Part shown: piece after piece, positions 14,111-24,101 of the stretch | How positions within the stretch are numbered: position 1 is the first letter of the stretch | How the letters are laid out: the number at the start of each line of letters is the position of its first letter | Assembly (NCBI GenBank): GCA_002104985.1 | Contig: MCGO01000017.1 | Span: 579,511 to 643,510 of the forward strand | Reading direction: 5' to 3' | DNA: 64,000 bases | Source: Rhizoclosmatium globosum | Taxonomy: Eukaryota; Chytridiomycota; Chytridiomycetes; Chytridiales; Chytriomycetaceae | The notes under the pieces: generated by a model | What the model was told of the DNA's origin: nothing | What the model saw: the letters and a program-made list of their open reading frames with translations, nothing else | Database searches by the model: none | Made by a program: the position numbers and the translations under genes

Positions 14111-17100
14111 ATGGCCAAAAGCGACGTCATCAAGAGTGTCAAGGGAGGAAAGGTCGAGAAGAAGGCTGCTCCAGTTAAGGAAGTCAAGAAGGCCGCTCCA
14201 GCTGCCAAGAAGGTTTGTTCAATATTGTCAGTCGATAATGTTATGGCAATCTCACTCCTACTTGTCAACCAATCAGCCTGTGAAGGAGGAGAGCTCAGAC
14301 GATGATAGCTCCGACGACGACAGCTCTGAGGAGGAAGCCCCAAAGAAGGTTGCCGCCAAGGTTGGTTCTTGTCAGTTGAAACCAGTAAATCTGTTATTGA
14401 TCATTCCAAAATAGCCTGCAGCCAAGAAGCCTGTCGAGTCTGAGTAAGTATTCTAATTGAATTCATGAATTTCCGCTAATATTGATCAATCTAGCTCTGA
14501 TGACCTGACTCAAGCGATGATTCCAGCGATGAAGAGCCTCCAAAGAAGGCACCAGCCAAGGTATTGTATTTTATCTATCCACTATCAATCGTTGGTATTC
14601 ATCGGTTGTAAAATGTAGGCTGTAGCCAAGAAGGAGGAATCCAGCGACGATGAATCTTCATCTGATGACGACAGCAGCGACGATGAGCCACCAAAGAAGG
14701 CTGCTCCTGTGAAGGTTGATTTAATTTTACAATTTTAAAAAATATCCTAACAATAAGTTTCAGGCTGCTGCCAAGAAGGAGGAGTCCAGTGACGAAGAGT
14801 CTTCCTCTGATGACGACAGCAGTGATGATGAGCCACCAAAGAAGGCTGCCGCCAAGCCTGTTGCCAAGGCTGTTGCCAAGAAGGAGGAATCCGATGACGA
14901 TGACTCTTCCAGCGATGATGACAGCGAGGACGAGAAGCCTGCCCCAAAGAAGGGCCGCTGCTAAGGTTTGTTTTGCTCCATTTTTTTGTATGGGAACTTG
15001 TCAGGGGATCTGACGGAGGGAGGGTTGCGGACTTCTCTTTTATTCTTTCTTTATTTATTTGTTTATTATCCGGTGGCTGTGTGGGAAAGCACCGGAAGGG
15101 GAAAATGTAAAAATAGAAACTACCTTGTGAACAAAGCAGCGTGCGAACGGGCTCTGTTGGTGGAGGGCGTCTGGAACAGGACGGGACGCCACCCGACATA
15201 CTTGAGCGAGGTGGCCTAGGTACGTTTCTCCCCCTTTCGAGCGTAGTGTCTAGCCTGAGTGTCGGGTTGACCTCCTGTAAGGGATGGAAGGGAGGCACCA
15301 TGACTGCAGGCATGTAAGGACAGGAGGGTTAGTACGGGTTTCAAAGCTGGATGGTTTCCCACCTACCCAGACCCGCGCTACGGGAATAGGGGACTGATCA
15401 ACGATCAACTGGGGATCACTGGACGGGTTCGGTGGATGTGGACCGAGGACAGTGATCGACTGCGGATGCGAACAGGACGGCTTGCGACAGGGATTCGCTG
15501 TAATGTGGGCTTGGACCTACTGGACGGACTGTGGGAAGGAGGGGACTTCCACTGGCGCATCCGAGATGAGGGGATCGGTGATAAGGTGATGTTTTCCTTT
15601 TTTATGTATGATGAGTGAGATACTATTGACTACGTGCTAGGTACCGTTACGTCAGACATGGACAACCTGACGTGCTTGGCGACGGCCGAGCCGGTATCCC
15701 GGTCACAGTGGGGGCCCAACACCAAATGCGAGTGTAGCGAGACGATTGGTCCGTCGATCGCTGGTCTTATTCCTCCGGCCTTCGGGCCGTCGAGATGATT
15801 ATTTATAGCGTTGAGCTTAGCTCCGCACTGCGTTGAGTTATACTCCGCCTCTATACAGGGCTCCGGCCTACCTTTATAAATGATGAAACTATGGTGTCGT
15901 AATGACACTGACAAATAGATGACTAATCATCGAGGATCACCAGCAACTACTACAACAACAACTACAACTACAACACCATACAACTCGAAATCGATTCGAA
16001 ACGATTCAGCATTGCAGTAAACACAGGACTGTGGAGATTGGAGGATGAAGGAGCAGGCTTATTCTAACTCCCCTAACACACCCCAACACCTTTTACACTT
16101 TATAATCAAATAAAACCCTTTATTTCACGAATATCAATCACTCGAGCCTTACCTGGTTGACAAAGACGTGAAGGAAGAAAAATGACAAATGAAATTTTTA
16201 GAAATATTCCGACTCACCAAAGGAATATGATTCTTTCTTTCCTTTTCCTTTTTTTCTTCACTTTCAAAAGAATGCAAACAAACCGTATGAACCTCGACCC
16301 GCCCGCTGGGCCGACCTCGACTGCAGCTGCTGCCAATAGAGCCGGCGAGTCTACTCACCCGTATACTAATCCTGCAAAGCAGGGGCGGTATTTCGAAACG
16401 AGGAGGTCGTAACCGTGTTGCTGCACGCAGCATGGATTCTTCTTGTCGAATAAGTCGGCAAACATTCGGCGCACAGGTGCGCTACCTTCGAGCCCTAAGC
16501 TCTACCTAATACTTATACTAATACAATTCATTTTATTATATTAGGTCGCGAAATGCCGGCTAACATTATTATTAACCAAAACAGCCACTTCATGGCAGAA
16601 TCGGCGAAGTTATTAGCCCATACGGTGCAGCTGATGGCTTCCATGGGTCAAAACTTGATGAACGAAGGCCTCCCTTACGACAAGGCTTGGGACGCTTGCC
16701 TCAAAACATCCAGCTTCCAATTGGAGCGACTCCTTGAACGCCAAAGAGAAGCCGACGCTATCGCTGCAGCAACACCACCTCTCCCACCACCTACCGAGGA
16801 GAACGCTACCCGTTACTTCCAACCTCAAGGAGGTCGCTACAGCCGTAACCATAACCAAGGCTCCTCCTCGAACGATACTACCACTCGTTCCGGACGTCCG
16901 TCCAATAGCACCAACCAGAACCCTGAGTTCATCCCAGTAAACGACCGAGAAGACGGAGAAATCCTAACCGATGCGCCCCGCTCGCCAGCTCAATCAAGTA
17001 AGGAGAACTTCATTCCCAAACTATATTTAACTGTAACACAGCCTCGGGTCTCACCGATGCCCTCGGCTCTACTGCGATCAACTAAAACAAGTAACAACAA

Positions 17101-20100
17101 AAACACTCCTCTTTTTTTTTGCGACCACTTTACAAAACCAATAAAATCTATTTGGAAAGTATAAACTTTGGACTTCTTCGAACAGACGTACCAAAACGAG
17201 AAGAACCACATCCCCAAAGTCAGAAACTTCGGAAAATTCCCAGATCCAACGCAGGTTTTCTTTTCTTCCTGCTCTTTTTTATTCTCCGAAAGAAAAATTG
17301 TGATTCACGTAACGATAACAGGAAGGTACAACCTTACCTTAATACGACCCCAACTAATCTACCTAATAGCATGAAAGTACAGCATAGCCCGAACAACATC
17401 AGAGCCAAACTCCGAAACCGAAACCTTCTCGGCCGTGAAAGAACGACGTTCAGTTTTAGTCAGTCACAAGCCGACAACTTTGTAAGGATTCGCTTATGAC
17501 AATTCCAAAAGAAGGTGATAAACTAGTGATTGAGTGCGATGCGTCCGGCACGGGACTCGGCGGAGCTCTTTTATTCAAGGGAATCAAACAAGAAAACTGA
17601 CCGTAAACCGGTCGCATTTATATCCAGAACACTTACAGACGTCGAAAAACGTTACTCGAATACAGATCGCGAAGGGCTCGCGGTGATATGGGCAGTAACA
17701 TGTTTCGATCGATATATCTTCAACCAACCGGCGACTGTCGAAACCGATCATAGCGCCTTATTAAGCCTTTTCAAAAATGGAGCACTTACAGGACGGTTCT
17801 CAAGATGGGCCTATGCCCTTTCGCATTACGACTTGACACTGGTCCATGTCCCGGCGACACGCAAATTGTGCCGATACTCTATCAAGAGTATATTTAGGAC
17901 GAAAAGAAAAGAATTTGAGAACGTTGGTACTCAGACAGAACCAACAACATTGGTTCAAGCTTTATCTCAAAACAATAAAACTGCTTTTATTAAACTTGCA
18001 AACCAAACAATCGACAAATTTACCTCACTTGGTGATACGATGCGAGGTATATGGAAGAAACTACAAAAGAAGAACGACCAGCTACGCGCTGTCAATAAAA
18101 AATCCCATCTTGAGGCCTATAAAAAAACCGCGAACCACTCGAAGGAACGCGATGCCCAAGTCTGAACTTCACGTCTCAGAATCTAAATGGTTTTAGTAAT
18201 TCATACACGCTTGGAAGAAGAGTAATACCGAAATAAATGAAGAACAGACCGAGGCTACAATTATGGAACAATACTTAGACATGTTAGGAGGAAGTGTCAT
18301 ATGTTTTCAAGAGACGCGACTGGGACGCAAGTCCACAAAACTCCTCTCACAAATGCAAACCCTTCCAAATTGGAGTTGCGCTATAAGCGACAACCTTTCG
18401 GGACATTACGGAGTAGCCACTCTATGGAGAAAGGACTTGAAAGGCGAGATTCACTCGTATGGCGCGATGGACGAGGCTGACCCGGAGGGTCGTATCCTTA
18501 CCATTACACTCGGCGACTTTGCTATTGTCAATTGTTACGCACCAAGTGGGAATAGAGATGAGAAAAGACATCTATTTAAAATAAACTTCCTTGAAAAATT
18601 AAAACGACACTGCCTACACCTACGTAAGAAACACTTTGTTCTGCTTATGGGCGACTTAAACATTGCCCCAGATTCGGAGAAAGATGTGATGCCGTTTGCC
18701 GTCAAAGAAAACTTGGTGGATTGTTTCGGTTCGACTATCAGCGCCGAAGAACAAATTTGGTTCAAATCAATGACTGAACACTTCCACGACGGCTTTCGAG
18801 TAAAACACCCAGAACCTCATGGCTCTACTTGGCTTTTAAAAGCATATGATAATAAAGTATACCCTTTTTGGAGAGTTGACCACATACTTATAGACAATAG
18901 GATTGATAAGAAACACTTCGACGTGAGGATCGACTCAAGAAAATGGGAAAGCGACCACGTCGCCCTGCAGTTACACACAACTTTCCACGGAAATGATAAA
19001 TCGATTTTGATTGACAGAACATCATGGACAAATAAAGAGAATCCTCAATACTATACCTTCTGTTCAGATGTAAACATTGATAACTTTGAAACAAATCTTA
19101 ACATAACATTACCGAATTCAGGTAAAACAGTTAAGGAAATCCGCGAACTTCAACTCGCCGATACCCACTTTGGCCCACTTTTAAGATTTCGCCAGTATGG
19201 TACAGTACCTGAACCAAAGGAGGGTGAAACAACTTTAACAAAAGATAACCTAATTGCATTGTCAAAGGACCTCATCGTCGACAGCAATGGACTCCTTTTC
19301 AAAATCCATAACGCCTCAAAACAACAAGTTCGAAAGCAACCAGCGCGCGTGACGTTATGTGTACCAGACAACATGCGACGAGAAATCCTGGATCTCCTCC
19401 ACTCAGACCTGTTTGCTGGACATTATGGGTTTGAGAAAGTTTATACACCCCTCCTTGATCGCTATTGGTGGCCAACAGTAAAGAACGATTTAGAAAATGA
19501 AATAAAATCTTGTCCTGAATGTAATACTGCCAAAGATTTCCGGCAAAAAGCTGGATATGTCTTTCCAATTCCAATTGGAAAACACCCTTGGGAAAGAGTG
19601 TTTGTTGACTTTATGCAACCACCAAAACCAGATGAGAAAACAGGTAACAAATACATCATGGTTGTTGTAGACTCTTTCACTAAATGGGCAGAAGCCATCC
19701 CAATACCGGACCTTAAAGCCAAAACAGTCGCTGAGGCGTTAGTGGAGAAAGTATTCTGCCATACCGGCGTCCCTGTTTACTTACATTCTGACGGTGGAGA
19801 ACCCTTCAACAGCAATCTTATGTTGCAACTCTCCAGGAGATTTGGATTTTATAAGACGTTCACCAGTCCCTACTGGCCCAGAGCAAATGGGATGGTCGAG
19901 CGACTTATCAAAAACTTATCAGAACGAATAAGACATTACATTAATAAATACACTTTTGATGATTGGGAAACCATACTCCCTTATGTTTTATTTGCGTATA
20001 GAACTCATGCCCATGGCACTACAGGAGAAACACCATTCTTTATGTTCCATGGATTTGACGCACGATTACCTTCTGACTTACTTCTGGGAATTAACCCCAT

Positions 20101-23100
20101 TGACATTGAAAAAGTCCTACCTGACTGTAAGGCAGACCTTACTGAAAAACCAACTTCTCTTGACCCCACCCCACAGACACTCACTATGACTTCCCAAGAA
20201 ACTGTTGAAGAACCATTCCCGGAAAAACTCCCTAAAATAGCCATCGCGTCCTACCGATCCTTTCGACAGTTTGTTCAAAGTAAACTATCCAAACATCTTT
20301 ATGGATACGAAACAGAATATAACCCACAACGCGTATTGAGGAAACTGTTTGAAAAATACAACTTAGATGCAATAGTCCTCATTCACAACTTACACCCAAA
20401 ACAAGATTATCGAACAGACTACCCAGTTCCATATACTTTTAAATTAGAAGATGGGACAGATATCCCAAGAATTGGGAACTTCCGCATTGGAGCGGCAACA
20501 GCGGATGGCAAAGTTAGAACTGTACTTGAGAACAAACCTGCAAAAAGAATAATAAATGTCTTCTCCCGAAAGAACTTAATACAAATAGGAAACAACTTAC
20601 CTGATAGTCTCCCTGAAGATAACCCTGAACCTCAGCTGTTCTTGGGAACACCAGGTATTTTACGCTGTATGTACCGCGCCTATAACTTTACCACTAAAAC
20701 ATATGTGGATTACATCATACCTTTAGTTGATGCAACTACTAAAGACTTTGTTGTAGTGAGAGGTGTCCCTTTGTGGGATGGAGCCACTCAATTCTTTACA
20801 GTTGGTGAATCCTTCTTATTTGATGAAGCTCCTATCCAAACTTTTATAATTAATGACTTTGAACCCACAAATGATGAAACTCCCATGACTTTGGTGAACG
20901 AGATGGACAGTGACTTTGATGATGTAGCGGTGGTTGGCGAAACCTCACCAGAAGACATCAAATCATTTACTGAGAGATTAGTAAGAGGCCTACAAGCTTC
21001 TAGATCTGTCATTATAGATAATGTTAATAAAGAACAAGAAAAGTATGCAACCCAAACAAATAGTAATGTTGACCCTTCTCATGAATTTAGAGTAGGAGAG
21101 CGCGCCTGGTTGGCGGTTCCCCTTACTGCTGAAGCGCAACGCCTTAAAGTTGGAAAGAAGTTTATTCCACGATGGGTTGGACCTGTTAGAATTGTTGACC
21201 GAGCGGAAGGAGACGCTCAAACAAAATATAGAGTCGTTGAACGATTCCCTGGTAACCAAATTGTTGTTAGAACAGTGCATGCTAGTCGACTCAGACCATT
21301 CACAGCGCGAGTACCTGTTGACAGTGCAGAGGATGCCATGAAATTAGCAGGTGATGACTTTGAGACTGAGTACAAGAAATGGTTAGACGATGAGAAGCTA
21401 ACAAGAAGACCTACCCACAAACAACAATATGCATCCGGCGCAAGCCCTTGGCTACTTGCAAAGATTGACCCTACTTTTAGTCAAGAAGACATCGATAACC
21501 CAAAATTAATTATTGATAAAATCTTAGATGTTAAAAAGACTGTCAATCCAACCTCCTTTGAGTATCTCACCAGTTGGGAGATGTGGGGACGAAAGGAACG
21601 CCATTGGCAACGAGAAGAGGATATGCCCTCGGAAGTTATAAGTGACTTCTGGGAACAAATAAAAGAAAGTATAGGCCTTTATGGAATGAATACAAAAAGA
21701 TGAAAGAGCGAATGTCTGAGAAAGTTAGTGGTGACTTAGCAATACCACTTGAGATTGACACGACTCCAACTGAAGTCCAACAGCAGAAAAGAAAGACAAA
21801 AGCCAAACCGGTAGAAAAGATTATCCAACCACCTGTAGTTACCGACGCCGTTGAACAAAGAGCTTTAAGATTACTTAAGAGGAATCAAAAAGAGGATGAG
21901 GCTACCCGCAAGTAGCCCCTTCCTAACACCACTTTTAGGTAATTAAATACAAGATCTTTGGATCCACCGGTGACCAGGGCACTACTAGGACGAACGCGCC
22001 TACTCATACAATTATGGCAAGAAAGGTGTTCTCATGGCTCGCGCCCTGGAGCGAGTTGAGAACAGCCCTTTCATTTCTTCAGCAGCTGGATGAGTGGTGG
22101 AGTTGGTTGTGTTGGTTTTTAGTTTCGTTTGGACATGTCGGTAGCCTTTCCTTGTTTCAGACTCTAGGTAACGGAGTACCTAGGGGTTTTTTGGAAAAGG
22201 GCCCACTGTCAGGGGATCTGACGGAGGGAGGGTTGCGGACTTCTCTTTTATTCTTTCTTTATTTATTTGTTTATTATCCGGTGGCTGTGTGGGAAAGCAC
22301 CGGAAGGGGAAAATGTAAAAATAGAAACTACCTTGTGAACAAAGCAGCGTGCGAACGGGCTCTGTTGGTGGAGGGCGTCTGGAACAGGACGGGCGCCACC
22401 CGACATACTTGAGCGAGGTGGCCTAGGTACGTTTCTCCCCCTTTGAGCGTAGTGTCTAGCCTGAGCGTCGGGTTGACCTCCTGTAAGGGATGGAAGGGAG
22501 GCACCATGACTGCAGGCATGTAAGGACAGGAGGGTTAGTACGGGTTTCAAAGCTGGATGGTTTCCCACCTACCCAGACCCGCGCTACGGGAATAGGGGAC
22601 TGATCAACGATCAACTGGGGATCACTGGACGGGTTCGGTGGATGTGGACCGAGGACAGTGATCGACTGCGGATGCGAACAGGACGGCTTGCGACAGGGAT
22701 TCGCTGTAATGTGGGCTTGGACCTACTGGACGGACTGTGGGAAGGAGGGGACTTCCACTGGCGCATCCGAGATGAGGGGATCGGTGATAAGGTGACGTTT
22801 TCCTTTTTTATGTATGAGTGAGATACTATTGACTACGTGCTAGGTACCGTTACGTCGGACATGGACAACCTGACGTGCTTGGCGACGGCCGAGCCGGTAT
22901 CCCGGTCACAAACTGACTTCGAGTTCTAGGAGGAATCCAGCGATGACGACAGCAGCGACGATGATGACGAAGAGGAGGAGGAAAGCCAGCCGCCAAGAAG
23001 CGTGTTGCTGAAGAAGAGGAGCAAGAGGAGGAGCCAGTTGCCAAGAAGCAGAAGTCTGAGGAGTCTGGAAGCGGTGAAACTAGAAACGGTATGTCCTTTT

Positions 23101-23943
23101 GACCAAAAGAAATCCTTAATAATTTGTTTTATTTGTTAGTGTTCGTTGGAAACCTCTCATGAATGCCGATGAGGATATGGTTGCTGCTCACTTTGCGGAA
23201 TGTGGAGAGGTTCTTGCTGTCCGTATCATCACCGACCAAGAATCTGGCCGAAAGAAGGGTTTTCGGTTACGTTGAATTTGCTGACGCCGAATCTGCCAAG
23301 AACGCTCTTAAGATGCACGAAACCGAGCTCGATGGCCGTGCTATCCGAGTTGACCTCTCTATCCAAAAGGAGCGTGCTGAGAAGAAGAGCTTCAACAACA
23401 AGAACAGCTTTACTCCATCTGCCCCAACTTCTGCCCCAGCTGACACATTATTTGTTGGAAACATGAGCTTTAACGCTCACGTTGATGGCCTCAAGGAACT
23501 CTTTGGAGAGTACGGAAACGTTACATCTGTCCGTATCCCAACTGATCGCGAGACTGGAGCTGTTAAAGGGTATGTGTATTCGAGGCTGATGTGTATTTGT
23601 TTCCTAAACTCTTTATTCCTCTAGTTTCGGTTACGTCTCATTCTCTAGTGTCGATGAGGCCAAGGCTGCCCTCGAGGCCCTTAATGGAGTTGACTATGAA
23701 GGACGAGGATTGCGTCTTGACTACAGCACACCAAGAGACAACGCTGGCGGTGCCGGTGGAGCTCGTGGTGGCCGAGGTGGGGGCCGTGGTGGATTCGGAG
23801 GTGACCGTGGAGGTCGTGGAGGAGCTCGCGGTGGCCGTGGTGGATTTGGTGGAGGTCGTGGAGGCGGTCGTGGAGGATTTGGAGCTCCAAGCCGTGGAGG
23901 TTTTAGCGCACAGCCAGCTGGAAAGAAAATTACTTTCGACTAA
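14111..23943 (+). CDS. Nucleolin/Gar2-like paralog 3 with repeated acidic exons, split by an LTR element in an intron
   Basis: It starts MAKSDVIKSVKGGKVEKKA. The N-terminal region is built of repeated small exons, each Lys/Ala/Pro-basic then Ser/Asp/Glu-acidic (for example AVAKKEESSDDESSSDDDS then PPKKAAPVK), separated by introns in the same phase. This recalls Nopp140-type modules. The intron 14966-22929 holds the 7.9-kb retrotransposon. After it come KPAAKKRVA-like basic residues, RRM1 (GRKKGF / GYVEFADAESAKNAL), RRM2 (DTLFVGNMSFNAHVDGLKEL ... FGYVSFSSVDEAKAALE), LDYSTPR, and a long RGG tail ending PAGKKITFD. Single-base frame breaks occur near 14510, 14953, 22985, 23158 and 23268; several are homopolymer length changes. 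The gene is probably functional if these are sequencing errors and the intron is still spliced. Confidence 0.75.
14999..15707 (+). repeat. 5' LTR
   Basis: 709 bp, starting tgtcagggga and ending cccggtcaca. It matches the 3' LTR except for three transitions and 1-, 1- and 3-bp indels. The first internal bases, from 15709, read TGGGGGCCCAACACC, which begins with TGG as a tRNA primer-binding site should, but I cannot name the tRNA. Confidence 0.93.
15708..16552. other. Leader between 5' LTR and gag-like ORF
   Basis: This 845-bp untranslated leader has a short GC hairpin (ccggccttcgggccg near 15777) and an imperfect direct repeat, gcgttgagcttagctccgc then gcgttgagttatactccgc, at about 15810-15850. 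Several short upstream ORFs exist but none resembles a protein domain. Packaging or translation signals may lie here; nothing in the sequence proves it. Confidence 0.4.
16553..17164 (+). CDS. Gag-like ORF of the LTR element
   Basis: 203 residues, MPANIIINQNSHFMAESAKL. The first 70 residues look helical (AKLLAHTVQLMASMGQNLMN ... SFQLERLLERQREADA). A Pro-rich hinge and a long Asn/Ser/Arg-rich disordered tail with RYSRNHNQ follow. No CCHC zinc knuckle is visible. The position directly after the leader suggests a capsid or gag remnant. It is short for a Gypsy gag and may be a 3'-truncated version, because the deletion that removed protease and RT begins just beyond it. Confidence 0.45.
   Translation: MPANIIINQNSHFMAESAKLLAHTVQLMASMGQNLMNEGLPYDKAWDACLKTSSFQLERLLERQREADAIAAATPPLPPPTEENATRYFQPQGGRYSRNHNQGSSSNDTTTRSGRPSNSTNQNPEFIPVNDREDGEILTDAPRSPAQSSKENFIPKLYLTVTQPRVSPMPSALLRSTKTSNNKNTPLFFCDHFTKPIKSIWKV
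17165..17495. other. Residual spacer where protease and reverse transcriptase are missing
   Basis: About 330 bp with no recognisable motif in any plus frame: no DTG/DSG protease motif and no YxDD box. In a complete element this interval would be well over 1.5 kb. It marks an internal deletion or rearrangement between gag and RNase H. Confidence 0.55.
17496..18165 (+). pseudogene. RNase H domain remnant plus coiled-coil linker of the LTR element
   Basis: From the ATG at 17496 the frame reads KLVIECDASGTGLGGALLF, which carries the first catalytic Asp. A frame change near 17585 then continues KPVAFISRTLTDVEKRYSN, TDREGLAVIWAV (catalytic Glu) and VETDHSALLSLF (second Asp), then RFSRWAYALSHYDLTLVHVP. 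This is the RNase H of Ty3/Gypsy polyproteins. The usual N-A-D-x-L-S-R end appears only in another frame, giving a second break near 17860. About 90 Lys/Asn/Gln-rich residues follow, possibly a linker, to a stop at 18165. The reading frames suggest an originally continuous RNase H-linker-EEP-integrase polyprotein. Confidence 0.75.
18263..21703 (+). CDS. EEP (ExoIII/AP-endonuclease-like) - integrase - chromodomain polyprotein
   Basis: An open frame of 1,146 codons. Residues 1-245 are an endonuclease/exonuclease/phosphatase fold: VICFQETRLG (catalytic Glu), GVATLWRKDL, EGRILTITLGDFAIVNCYAP, FVLLMGDLNIAPDSE (Asp/Asn pair), FWRVDHILID and WESDHVALQL (final Asp-His). The first strand (LNFTSQNLNGF, 18162-18194) sits upstream in another frame, so the true start is earlier. 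Residues about 380-420 form the integrase HHCC finger. The catalytic core follows: VFVDFMQ (about 446), LHSDGGEPF (about 507), then exactly 35 residues to the Glu of NGMVERLIK. About 330 residues I cannot identify follow. Then come an SH3-like C-terminal domain (FRVGERAWLAVP ... FIPRWVGPVRIVDR, about 935-1012) and a chromodomain-like end (IIDKILDVKK ... WQREEDMPSEVI, about 1081-1133). Confidence 0.85.
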   Translation: MEQYLDMLGGSVICFQETRLGRKSTKLLSQMQTLPNWSCAISDNLSGHYGVATLWRKDLKGEIHSYGAMDEADPEGRILTITLGDFAIVNCYAPSGNRDEKRHLFKINFLEKLKRHCLHLRKKHFVLLMGDLNIAPDSEKDVMPFAVKENLVDCFGSTISAEEQIWFKSMTEHFHDGFRVKHPEPHGSTWLLKAYDNKVYPFWRVDHILIDNRIDKKHFDVRIDSRKWESDHVALQLHTTFHGNDKSILIDRTSWTNKENPQYYTFCSDVNIDNFETNLNITLPNSGKTVKEIRELQLADTHFGPLLRFRQYGTVPEPKEGETTLTKDNLIALSKDLIVDSNGLLFKIHNASKQQVRKQPARVTLCVPDNMRREILDLLHSDLFAGHYGFEKVYTPLLDRYWWPTVKNDLENEIKSCPECNTAKDFRQKAGYVFPIPIGKHPWERVFVDFMQPPKPDEKTGNKYIMVVVDSFTKWAEAIPIPDLKAKTVAEALVEKVFCHTGVPVYLHSDGGEPFNSNLMLQLSRRFGFYKTFTSPYWPRANGMVERLIKNLSERIRHYINKYTFDDWETILPYVLFAYRTHAHGTTGETPFFMFHGFDARLPSDLLLGINPIDIEKVLPDCKADLTEKPTSLDPTPQTLTMTSQETVEEPFPEKLPKIAIASYRSFRQFVQSKLSKHLYGYETEYNPQRVLRKLFEKYNLDAIVLIHNLHPKQDYRTDYPVPYTFKLEDGTDIPRIGNFRIGAATADGKVRTVLENKPAKRIINVFSRKNLIQIGNNLPDSLPEDNPEPQLFLGTPGILRCMYRAYNFTTKTYVDYIIPLVDATTKDFVVVRGVPLWDGATQFFTVGESFLFDEAPIQTFIINDFEPTNDETPMTLVNEMDSDFDDVAVVGETSPEDIKSFTERLVRGLQASRSVIIDNVNKEQEKYATQTNSNVDPSHEFRVGERAWLAVPLTAEAQRLKVGKKFIPRWVGPVRIVDRAEGDAQTKYRVVERFPGNQIVVRTVHASRLRPFTARVPVDSAEDAMKLAGDDFETEYKKWLDDEKLTRRPTHKQQYASGASPWLLAKIDPTFSQEDIDNPKLIIDKILDVKKTVNPTSFEYLTSWEMWGRKERHWQREEDMPSEVISDFWEQIKESIGLYGMNTKR
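21700..21915 (+). CDS. Small basic ORF overlapping the integrase stop codon
   Basis: 71 codons. Its ATG shares bases with the preceding TGA (ATGA overlap), an arrangement seen where translation terminates and reinitiates. The protein is Lys/Gln/Glu-rich (QQQKRKTKAKPVEK, EQRALRLLKRNQKEDEATRK) with no recognised domain. It may be an independent small protein, or simply the rest of the integrase C-terminus separated by a one-base shift. Confidence 0.35.
   Translation: MKERMSEKVSGDLAIPLEIDTTPTEVQQQKRKTKAKPVEKIIQPPVVTDAVEQRALRLLKRNQKEDEATRK
22207..22910 (+). repeat. 3' LTR
   Basis: 704 bp, same ends as the 5' LTR. It is preceded by a purine run ggaaaaggg (22193-22201) that fits a polypurine tract for plus-strand priming. 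It is followed directly by aact, the right copy of the target duplication. Confidence 0.93.
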
Positions 23944-24101
23944 ATTTCAGACGGATTCTTGTTTCTACATATGAACAAATAAATGCTTCGTAAACTTCAA
24001 GTTTTATTGGGCGAATGGGCCCAGTTCTTTCTTTACTCGAGCCCTGATTTCTTGATGATAGCGGTTATCTTTGAAACCTGATCCCTCCTCAGCTTCCTTT
24101 C

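What the first reader, a model, noticed from the sequence alone, without database searches (positions are those of the whole stretch)
18162..21703. Complete EEP (ExoIII/AP-endonuclease) domain joined to integrase in an LTR retrotransposon
All catalytic blocks of the EEP fold are present in order (N in LNG, QET, GDLN, WRVDH, SDH), immediately before an HHCC finger, a D-D-35-E integrase core and a chromodomain in one frame. EEP/APE domains are the hallmark of non-LTR (LINE) elements; Ty3/Gypsy elements use only integrase. An LTR element encoding both may nick or process its target or cDNA ends with a second nuclease, or use the EEP as an abasic-site repair enzyme. I do not know of a described family with this order.
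Basis: partly seen in the sequence, partly recalled or inferred. Interest (0 to 1): 0.88.

Follow-up and report, generated by a model that had tools for sequence, protein, structure and literature searches.

The report
LTR retrotransposons carrying a DNA-repair nuclease
Many LTR retrotransposons in this probably fungal genome encode, in the same polyprotein as reverse transcriptase and integrase, an enzyme of the kind cells use to repair damaged DNA, and they have kept it through long evolution, which suggests they need it to copy themselves.

Summary
The EEP-integrase fusion is real, not a nested LINE or assembly join. The window element is an LTR retrotransposon (LTRs 14999-15707, 22207-22910; TSD AACT) whose reverse transcriptase is deleted; the first EEP block is in another frame. 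A 13.06-kb copy (C113) has one 3,609-codon open frame with CCHC, RT, RNase H, EEP, H2C2 and integrase; protease and chromodomain matches are sub-threshold. Of 60 Integrase_H2C2 loci in this genome, 46 have an EEP within 6 kb upstream on the same strand (0.26 expected). All 35 matches above the curated ExoIII/APE1 cut-off are among these 46; the other 11 fall below, two of them with intact frames. Catalytic residues are invariant in ten divergent EEPs, under purifying selection. Two EEP clades match two integrase clades; EEP lies between RNase H and integrase, or before RT. Identical LTRs and 4-bp TSDs show recent, ordinary integrase-type insertion in the window family. Most likely role, inferred: an AP endonuclease/3'-end cleaner acting on cDNA, comparable to retroviral dUTPase. 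Precedent: EEP reported as sporadic in animal Kuafuorterviruses. New variant of a known kind.

The parts
14995..14998 (.). target-site duplication AACT (left)
   Evidence: matches 22911-22914
14999..15707 (+). 5' LTR (TGTCAG..GTCACA)
15709..15723 (+). primer-binding-site-like stretch one base after the LTR
   Evidence: sequence; assignment by recall, tRNA not identified
15708..17475 (+). 5' untranslated region and start of the gag part; collinear with full-length copy C113 (98% over 14999-17475)
17475..17476 (+). junction of internal deletion (5,131 bp present in C113 are missing, RT among them)
17590..17829 (+). RNase H remnant (RT_RNaseH PF17917, frame-broken)
18162..18196 (+). first EEP block (QNLNGF) in a frame different from the rest of the EEP
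   Evidence: sequence; in-frame counterpart
18200..21700 (+). open frame of 1,167 codons: EEP - H2C2 - integrase - chromodomain-like C-terminus (first ATG 18263)
18296..18958 (+). EEP domain, ExoIII/APE1 type (PF03372; TIGR00633 at 18266-18970, 106.6 bits, from model position 20)
   Evidence: conserved E38, Y113, D152/N154, D227, D252/H253 counted from 18200
19361..19534 (+). Integrase_H2C2 zinc finger
19583..19900 (+). integrase core, D-D-35-E (D 19607, D 19790, E 19898); best relative among PDB sequences is Ty3 Gag-Pol 7q5b
21509..21655 (+). chromodomain-like stretch (below Pfam cut-off)
22183..22206 (+). polypurine-tract-like stretch before 3' LTR
   Evidence: sequence; assignment by recall
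22207..22910 (+). 3' LTR (3 transitions in 704 aligned bases and 5 gap columns against the 5' LTR)
22911..22914 (.). target-site duplication AACT (right)

Best explanation
The window holds an internally deleted copy of a 13-kb Ty3/Gypsy-type LTR retrotransposon. Its lineage captured a class-II AP endonuclease of the ExoIII/APE1 family and keeps it as a domain of its polyprotein, usually shortly before the integrase. Shown by sequence: the architecture, its conservation in many families, purifying selection, invariant catalytic residues, and recent insertion with 4-bp TSDs in the window family. Inferred: the polyprotein is packaged and cleaved by the element's protease; the EEP acts inside the particle or pre-integration complex on reverse-transcribed DNA; it incises abasic sites, removes blocked or mispaired 3' ends and so raises the yield of integrable cDNA. 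Integration itself is done by the DDE integrase in the ordinary way. In logic this resembles the dUTPase of some retroviruses.
For: Architecture. ExoIII/APE1 type: nine of nine LTR-element EEPs given to NCBIfam pass TIGR00633 (106.9-136 bits, cut-off 99.05), and so does P0001 (134.6). Genome-wide 35 of 67 matches pass and all 35 are integrase-linked (cross-read by hand). Four LINE-type EEPs of the same genome score 84, 64, 41 bits and nothing. Catalytic columns are invariant in ten EEPs with down to 21% identity to the first. Selection: families B against C, EEP pN 0.102, pS 0.78 over 276 codons. EEP and integrase trees give the same two clades. The EEP is kept despite two positions in the polyprotein. 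Transposition: 4-bp TSDs in 7 of 8 LTR pairs (6 independent sites), LTRs identical in 5 of 8. [quoted passage not shown] Retroviral dUTPase also sits at variable places in pol (PMC2427051, passages).
Against: No biochemistry and no expression data. Of the 46 integrase-linked EEPs, 11 do not reach the ExoIII cut-off. Most of these are cut or broken, but C383:78629 and C301 (68 bits, frames of 1,873 codons without stops) overlap the LINE scores of up to 84-85 bits, so the cut-off alone does not separate the two kinds. The linker between EEP and finger is conserved nearly as well (pN 0.133), and between families A and C the EEP (pN 0.334) changes faster than RT (0.241) or integrase (0.26). The protease is weak (PF13650, 18.7 bits, cut-off 24.3), so cleavage and packaging are assumed. 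Nothing in the sequence separates repair from the other known activities of this enzyme family. In the window family the residue before the first catalytic Asn is Q instead of W. No uracil glycosylase or dUTPase appeared in the C113 pieces scanned (the gag part was not scanned).
Confidence: 0.5

Rival explanations
1. The EEP is a second nuclease of integration: it trims cDNA 3' ends, removes extra bases or helps process or nick the target together with the adjacent integrase.
For: Position shortly before the H2C2 finger, 325-764 nt upstream in 39 of 46 linked loci. Family-A TSDs (6 sites) all fit R-A-M-N in the element's orientation.
Against: TG..CA ends and 4-bp TSDs need no second nuclease. 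Four loci and P0172 have the EEP before RT instead. Family-C right flanks show no such bias.
Confidence: 0.2
2. The EEP supplies an extra RNase H or primer-removal activity, as the added archaeal-type RNase H may do in Tat, Chronos and Archon elements.
For: It usually follows the element's RNase H; human APE1 has RNase H activity (PMC2923195). Added RNase H domains have been captured repeatedly (PMC5348765, passages).
Against: The element's own RNase H keeps DASG and TDH motifs in the three families read, so it is not being replaced. RNase H is a side activity of this enzyme family (recalled).
Confidence: 0.12
3. The EEP acts on the host (DNA damage response, counter-defence against cDNA editing or silencing) rather than on cDNA.
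For: APE1 has several roles in its host (PMC2923195).
Against: It is embedded in the polyprotein with RT and integrase, which argues for a role with them.
Confidence: 0.07
4. The junction is a nested LINE fragment, an assembly join, or a passenger domain without function.
For: In this copy the first block is out of frame and RT is deleted.
Against: 11 copies, several families, single frames, invariant catalytic residues, purifying selection; LINE EEPs group apart, though with unstarred support (90/92).
Confidence: 0.03

Closest known systems
Ty3/Gypsy (Metaviridae) LTR retrotransposons, chromovirus-like
   Same: LTRs with TG..CA, RT-RNH-INT order, YVDD, H2C2 and D-D-35-E; best relative among PDB sequences is Ty3
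   Different: adds an ExoIII/APE1 domain; chromodomain weak; very large single frame (3,609 codons in C113)
ExoIII/APE1 class-II AP endonucleases (TIGR00633 xth)
   Same: 35 integrase-linked matches pass the curated cut-off; catalytic columns kept; matching fold
   Different: encoded inside a retrotransposon polyprotein; 11 linked matches fall below the cut-off
LINE (non-LTR) elements with an APE-type endonuclease
   Same: an EEP and an RT in one protein
   Different: LTRs, integrase and 4-bp TSDs present; EEP not grouped with the LINE EEPs of the same genome
Kuafuorterviruses (PMC11673190, one passage seen)
   Same: LTR elements in which Exo_endo_phos is noted as sporadic
   Different: animal elements with IADD, VADD or LADD in RT; here YVDD, EEP common and conserved
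dUTPase-bearing retroviruses (PMC2427051, passages seen)
   Same: captured DNA-quality enzyme in the polyprotein at variable positions
   Different: dUTPase prevents uracil incorporation; an EEP would act on lesions and ends

Membership tests
LTR retrotransposon | two LTRs with TG..CA ends and a target-site duplication | tested here: met
   window and 6 of 7 further family-A LTR pairs; C286 has no matching flanks. Family B (C366) has a 664-nt LTR pair but its ends and TSD were not resolved
Ty3/Gypsy type | RT-RNH-INT order with Ty3-like integrase | tested here: met
   copy C113; Ty3 best PDB relative of the window integrase. Not met in the window copy itself, whose RT is deleted
Chromovirus | chromodomain at the integrase C-terminus | tested here: inconclusive
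   PF00385 14.9 bits in window, 15.1 in C113, 23.8 in P0001; cut-off 25.1
ExoIII/APE1 (xth) family | score above curated cut-off of TIGR00633 | tested here: met
   window copy 106.6 bits against 99.05; 35 of the 46 integrase-linked loci reach it, 11 do not
ExoIII/APE1 (xth) family | catalytic residues N, E, Y, D-N, D, D-H (naming of residues partly recalled) | tested here: met
   invariant in the alignment of ten; in the window copy the first N is in another frame
ExoIII/APE1 (xth) family | AP endonuclease activity | not testable with these tools
   needs protein
LINE | no LTRs and no integrase | tested here: not met
Kuafuorterviruses | RT motif IADD, VADD or LADD | tested here: not met
   YVDD in families A, B, C

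The most novel reading that the evidence does not exclude
A deep group of LTR retrotransposons in which a captured AP endonuclease has become an obligatory partner of reverse transcription or integration, so that cDNA is proof-read, repaired or end-processed by the element itself. This would be an LTR-type replication strategy with two DNA nucleases, possibly gained more than once (TE1, TE2, P0172).
Probability: 0.35. Interest if true: 0.87.

Novelty: new variant of a known kind. Interest (0 to 1): 0.72.

Why it matters
Reverse transcription is error-prone, and element-encoded care for the cDNA is known mainly through dUTPase (recalled, and PMC2427051). Here a repair-type nuclease is fixed in a diverse and partly very young set of LTR elements, giving a natural system in which its role can be tested. 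It also weakens the rule of thumb that an APE-type domain marks a LINE (PMC10799480 lists PF03372 under LINE; passage seen), so such elements may be misclassified. Two domain positions and EEP-less elements in the same genome allow comparison.
Full report
What is in the window. The finding lies inside an LTR retrotransposon with LTRs at 14999-15707 and 22207-22910 (TGTCAG...GTCACA) and a 4-bp target-site duplication AACT. The long frame 18200-21700 has, in order, an EEP domain (PF03372), an Integrase_H2C2 finger, an integrase core and a weak chromodomain. The integrase has D-D-35-E, and its best relative among PDB sequences is the Ty3 Gag-Pol protein (7q5b, E 4.7e-26). The first EEP block is in a different frame from the rest, and the chromodomain is below Pfam's cut-off. 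The copy is also internally deleted: 5,131 bp present in copy C113 are missing at 17475/17476, the RT among them.

Other copies. The genome (unnamed, 56.9 Mb) has 11 full-length matches to the finding at 98-100% DNA identity, the window included, plus one partial match at a contig end. Some are probably the same locus on two contigs: C79 and C68 share both flanks, C286 shares the right flank, and C55 and C112 share a right flank. Copy C113 spans 13,059 bp from LTR to LTR and has one open frame of 3,609 codons. In the pieces scanned this frame has a CCHC knuckle, a sub-threshold aspartic protease, RT (130 bits), RNase H, H2C2, rve and a sub-threshold chromodomain. Its EEP, cut in two by the piece border, scores 42.8 bits whole. 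Seven of the 11 copies keep an EEP above the ExoIII cut-off (C25, C113, C286, C68, C79, C384, C168); C112, C257, C189 and C55 do not.

Recent movement. Eight LTR pairs of the window family were compared. Five pairs are identical over 706-711 bases; the window and C68 differ by 3 transitions in 704 (5 gap columns), and C286 by 5 in 701 (11 gap columns). Seven of the eight have a 4-bp TSD (six independent sites); C286 does not. Copies C168, C55, C112 and the C268 fragment were not tested, for lack of a complete left LTR in the sequence held. In family B (C366) an LTR pair of 664 nt, 99.7% alike, was found, but its ends and TSD were not resolved.

How general it is. PF03372 gave 83 matches and PF17921 (integrase finger) 60 in this genome. 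Of the 60 fingers, 46 have an EEP within 6 kb upstream on the same strand, against 0.26 expected by chance. Thirty-nine are 325-764 nt upstream. Three are about 1,965 nt upstream (C146, C347, C411; no RT or RNase H was listed on those contigs). Four are 3.0-3.35 kb upstream with RT and RNase H in between (C368, C412, C383, C301). In 32 of 46 the two matches report the same open-frame length, taken as one frame (counted by hand). Fourteen fingers have no EEP upstream; two of these (C55, C189) are copies of the window family with broken EEPs. Counts include probable duplicate contigs, and the tool calls them lower bounds.

Outside this genome. Two protein searches listed 193 different proteins (75, and 120 of 125), and two of them carry PF03372 in the precomputed domains. 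P0001 (1,710 aa, ENA, unnamed) has RNH-EEP-H2C2-INT in one protein, 45% identical to the window protein over the EEP-integrase part. P0172 (2,499 aa, ENA, unnamed) has EEP-RT-RNH-H2C2-INT with a sub-threshold SET match. The third search, with ten EEPs, listed seven proteins, two of them named: Obelidium mucronatum and Blyttiomyces sp. JEL0837, both Chytridiomycota. Both are partial, and whether an integrase follows was not seen. The host is therefore probably a chytrid. That is an inference; no host gene was tested.

What the EEP is. Nine of nine LTR-element EEPs given to NCBIfam pass the curated cut-off of TIGR00633, exodeoxyribonuclease III, and so does P0001. The tenth EEP, L054, was not given; its locus (C383:78629) and its relative C301 score 68 bits, below the 99.05 cut-off. 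Four LINE-type EEPs of the same genome (L031, L032, L036, L047) score 41, 64, no match and 84 bits. Of 67 genome matches to TIGR00633, 35 reach the cut-off and all 35 are in the list of 46 integrase-linked loci; 11 of the 46 do not reach it, most of them cut or broken (cross-read by hand). So the best ExoIII-type matches here are all in LTR elements, but the cut-off does not separate every such EEP from LINE EEPs. The host's own AP endonuclease, if split by introns, would not reach it, so this is no claim that the host lacks one. Ten EEPs as little as 21% identical to the first keep the catalytic columns (residue roles partly recalled). The window EEP matches ExoIII, plant ARP and APE1 by sequence. 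The predicted fold (mean pLDDT 73) matches the same family, but its alignment included ExoIII rows.

Selection and co-inheritance. Between families B (C214) and C (C416) the EEP has pS 0.78 and pN 0.102 over 276 codons; RT, RNase H and integrase have pN 0.075, 0.080 and 0.057; the linker between EEP and finger has 0.133 and the C-terminal part 0.227. Synonymous sites are saturated, so no exact ratio can be given. Between A and C the EEP (pN 0.334) changes faster than RT (0.241) and integrase (0.26). The EEP is thus under clear purifying selection, somewhat weaker than that on the core enzymes. The EEP tree (37 rows) gives two starred clades, TE1 (99/99) and TE2 (100/100). LINE rows (90/92) and bacterial and archaeal ExoIII rows (85/84) group apart, without stars. 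Whether TE1 and TE2 join is unresolved (81/25). The integrase tree (36 rows) gives the same two clades (100/100 each), and two EEP-less integrases of the same genome fall elsewhere. TE2 contains both domain orders, so the EEP was kept while its place changed. TE2 integrases are very divergent, and the rve match of the two scanned is below cut-off.

How it most likely works. Shown: the gene structure, its conservation and integrase-type insertion. Inferred: the EEP travels with RT and integrase and acts on cDNA. [quoted passage not shown] The best analogy is the dUTPase of some retroviruses, which is placed variously before protease, between RT and integrase, or after integrase, and is expected to be packaged (PMC2427051, passages). 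I therefore favour repair and end-cleaning of cDNA (about even odds) over a part in integration or primer removal. Direct target nicking is the least needed, since TSDs and LTR ends of the window family are those of ordinary integrase reactions.

What is known. The survey of LTR retrotransposons in fungi (PMC3248453, passages) mentions complex elements with extra domains, but no EEP in the passages seen. Kuafuorterviruses are said to carry Exo_endo_phos sporadically (PMC11673190, one passage). I found no description of this order in the searches listed under Tried and rejected, in a library that lacks most subscription journals. The kind, an LTR element with a captured enzyme, is known; the enzyme, its conservation across two clades and its two positions are the new variant.

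Noticed in passing
window 14599-14998 and 22911-23975: The element appears to split the acidic tract of a nucleolin-like RRM gene (read from the translations, not tested by a domain search); contig C68 carries the same insertion.
   Followed up: partly
P0172: This EEP-bearing polyprotein also has a sub-threshold SET domain match between RNase H and integrase.
   Followed up: no
P0001, residues 1009-1086: A weak, sub-threshold retropepsin-like stretch lies after the integrase.
   Followed up: no
G000 contigs C146, C347, C411: EEP about 1,965 nt before the H2C2 finger, with no RT or RNase H listed on these contigs; RT may be too diverged for PF00078.
   Followed up: no
L056, L057, L058 (C397, C383, C368): TE2 integrases form a very divergent, fully supported clade; possibly a new LTR lineage.
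   Followed up: partly
family A TSDs: Six TSDs (AACT, GACA, AAAT, GAAC, GACG, GAAG) all fit R-A-M-N in the element's orientation; family C right flanks do not.
   Followed up: partly
L055, 1679-2572: A giant-virus-like contig encodes a stand-alone ExoIII-type nuclease.
   Followed up: no
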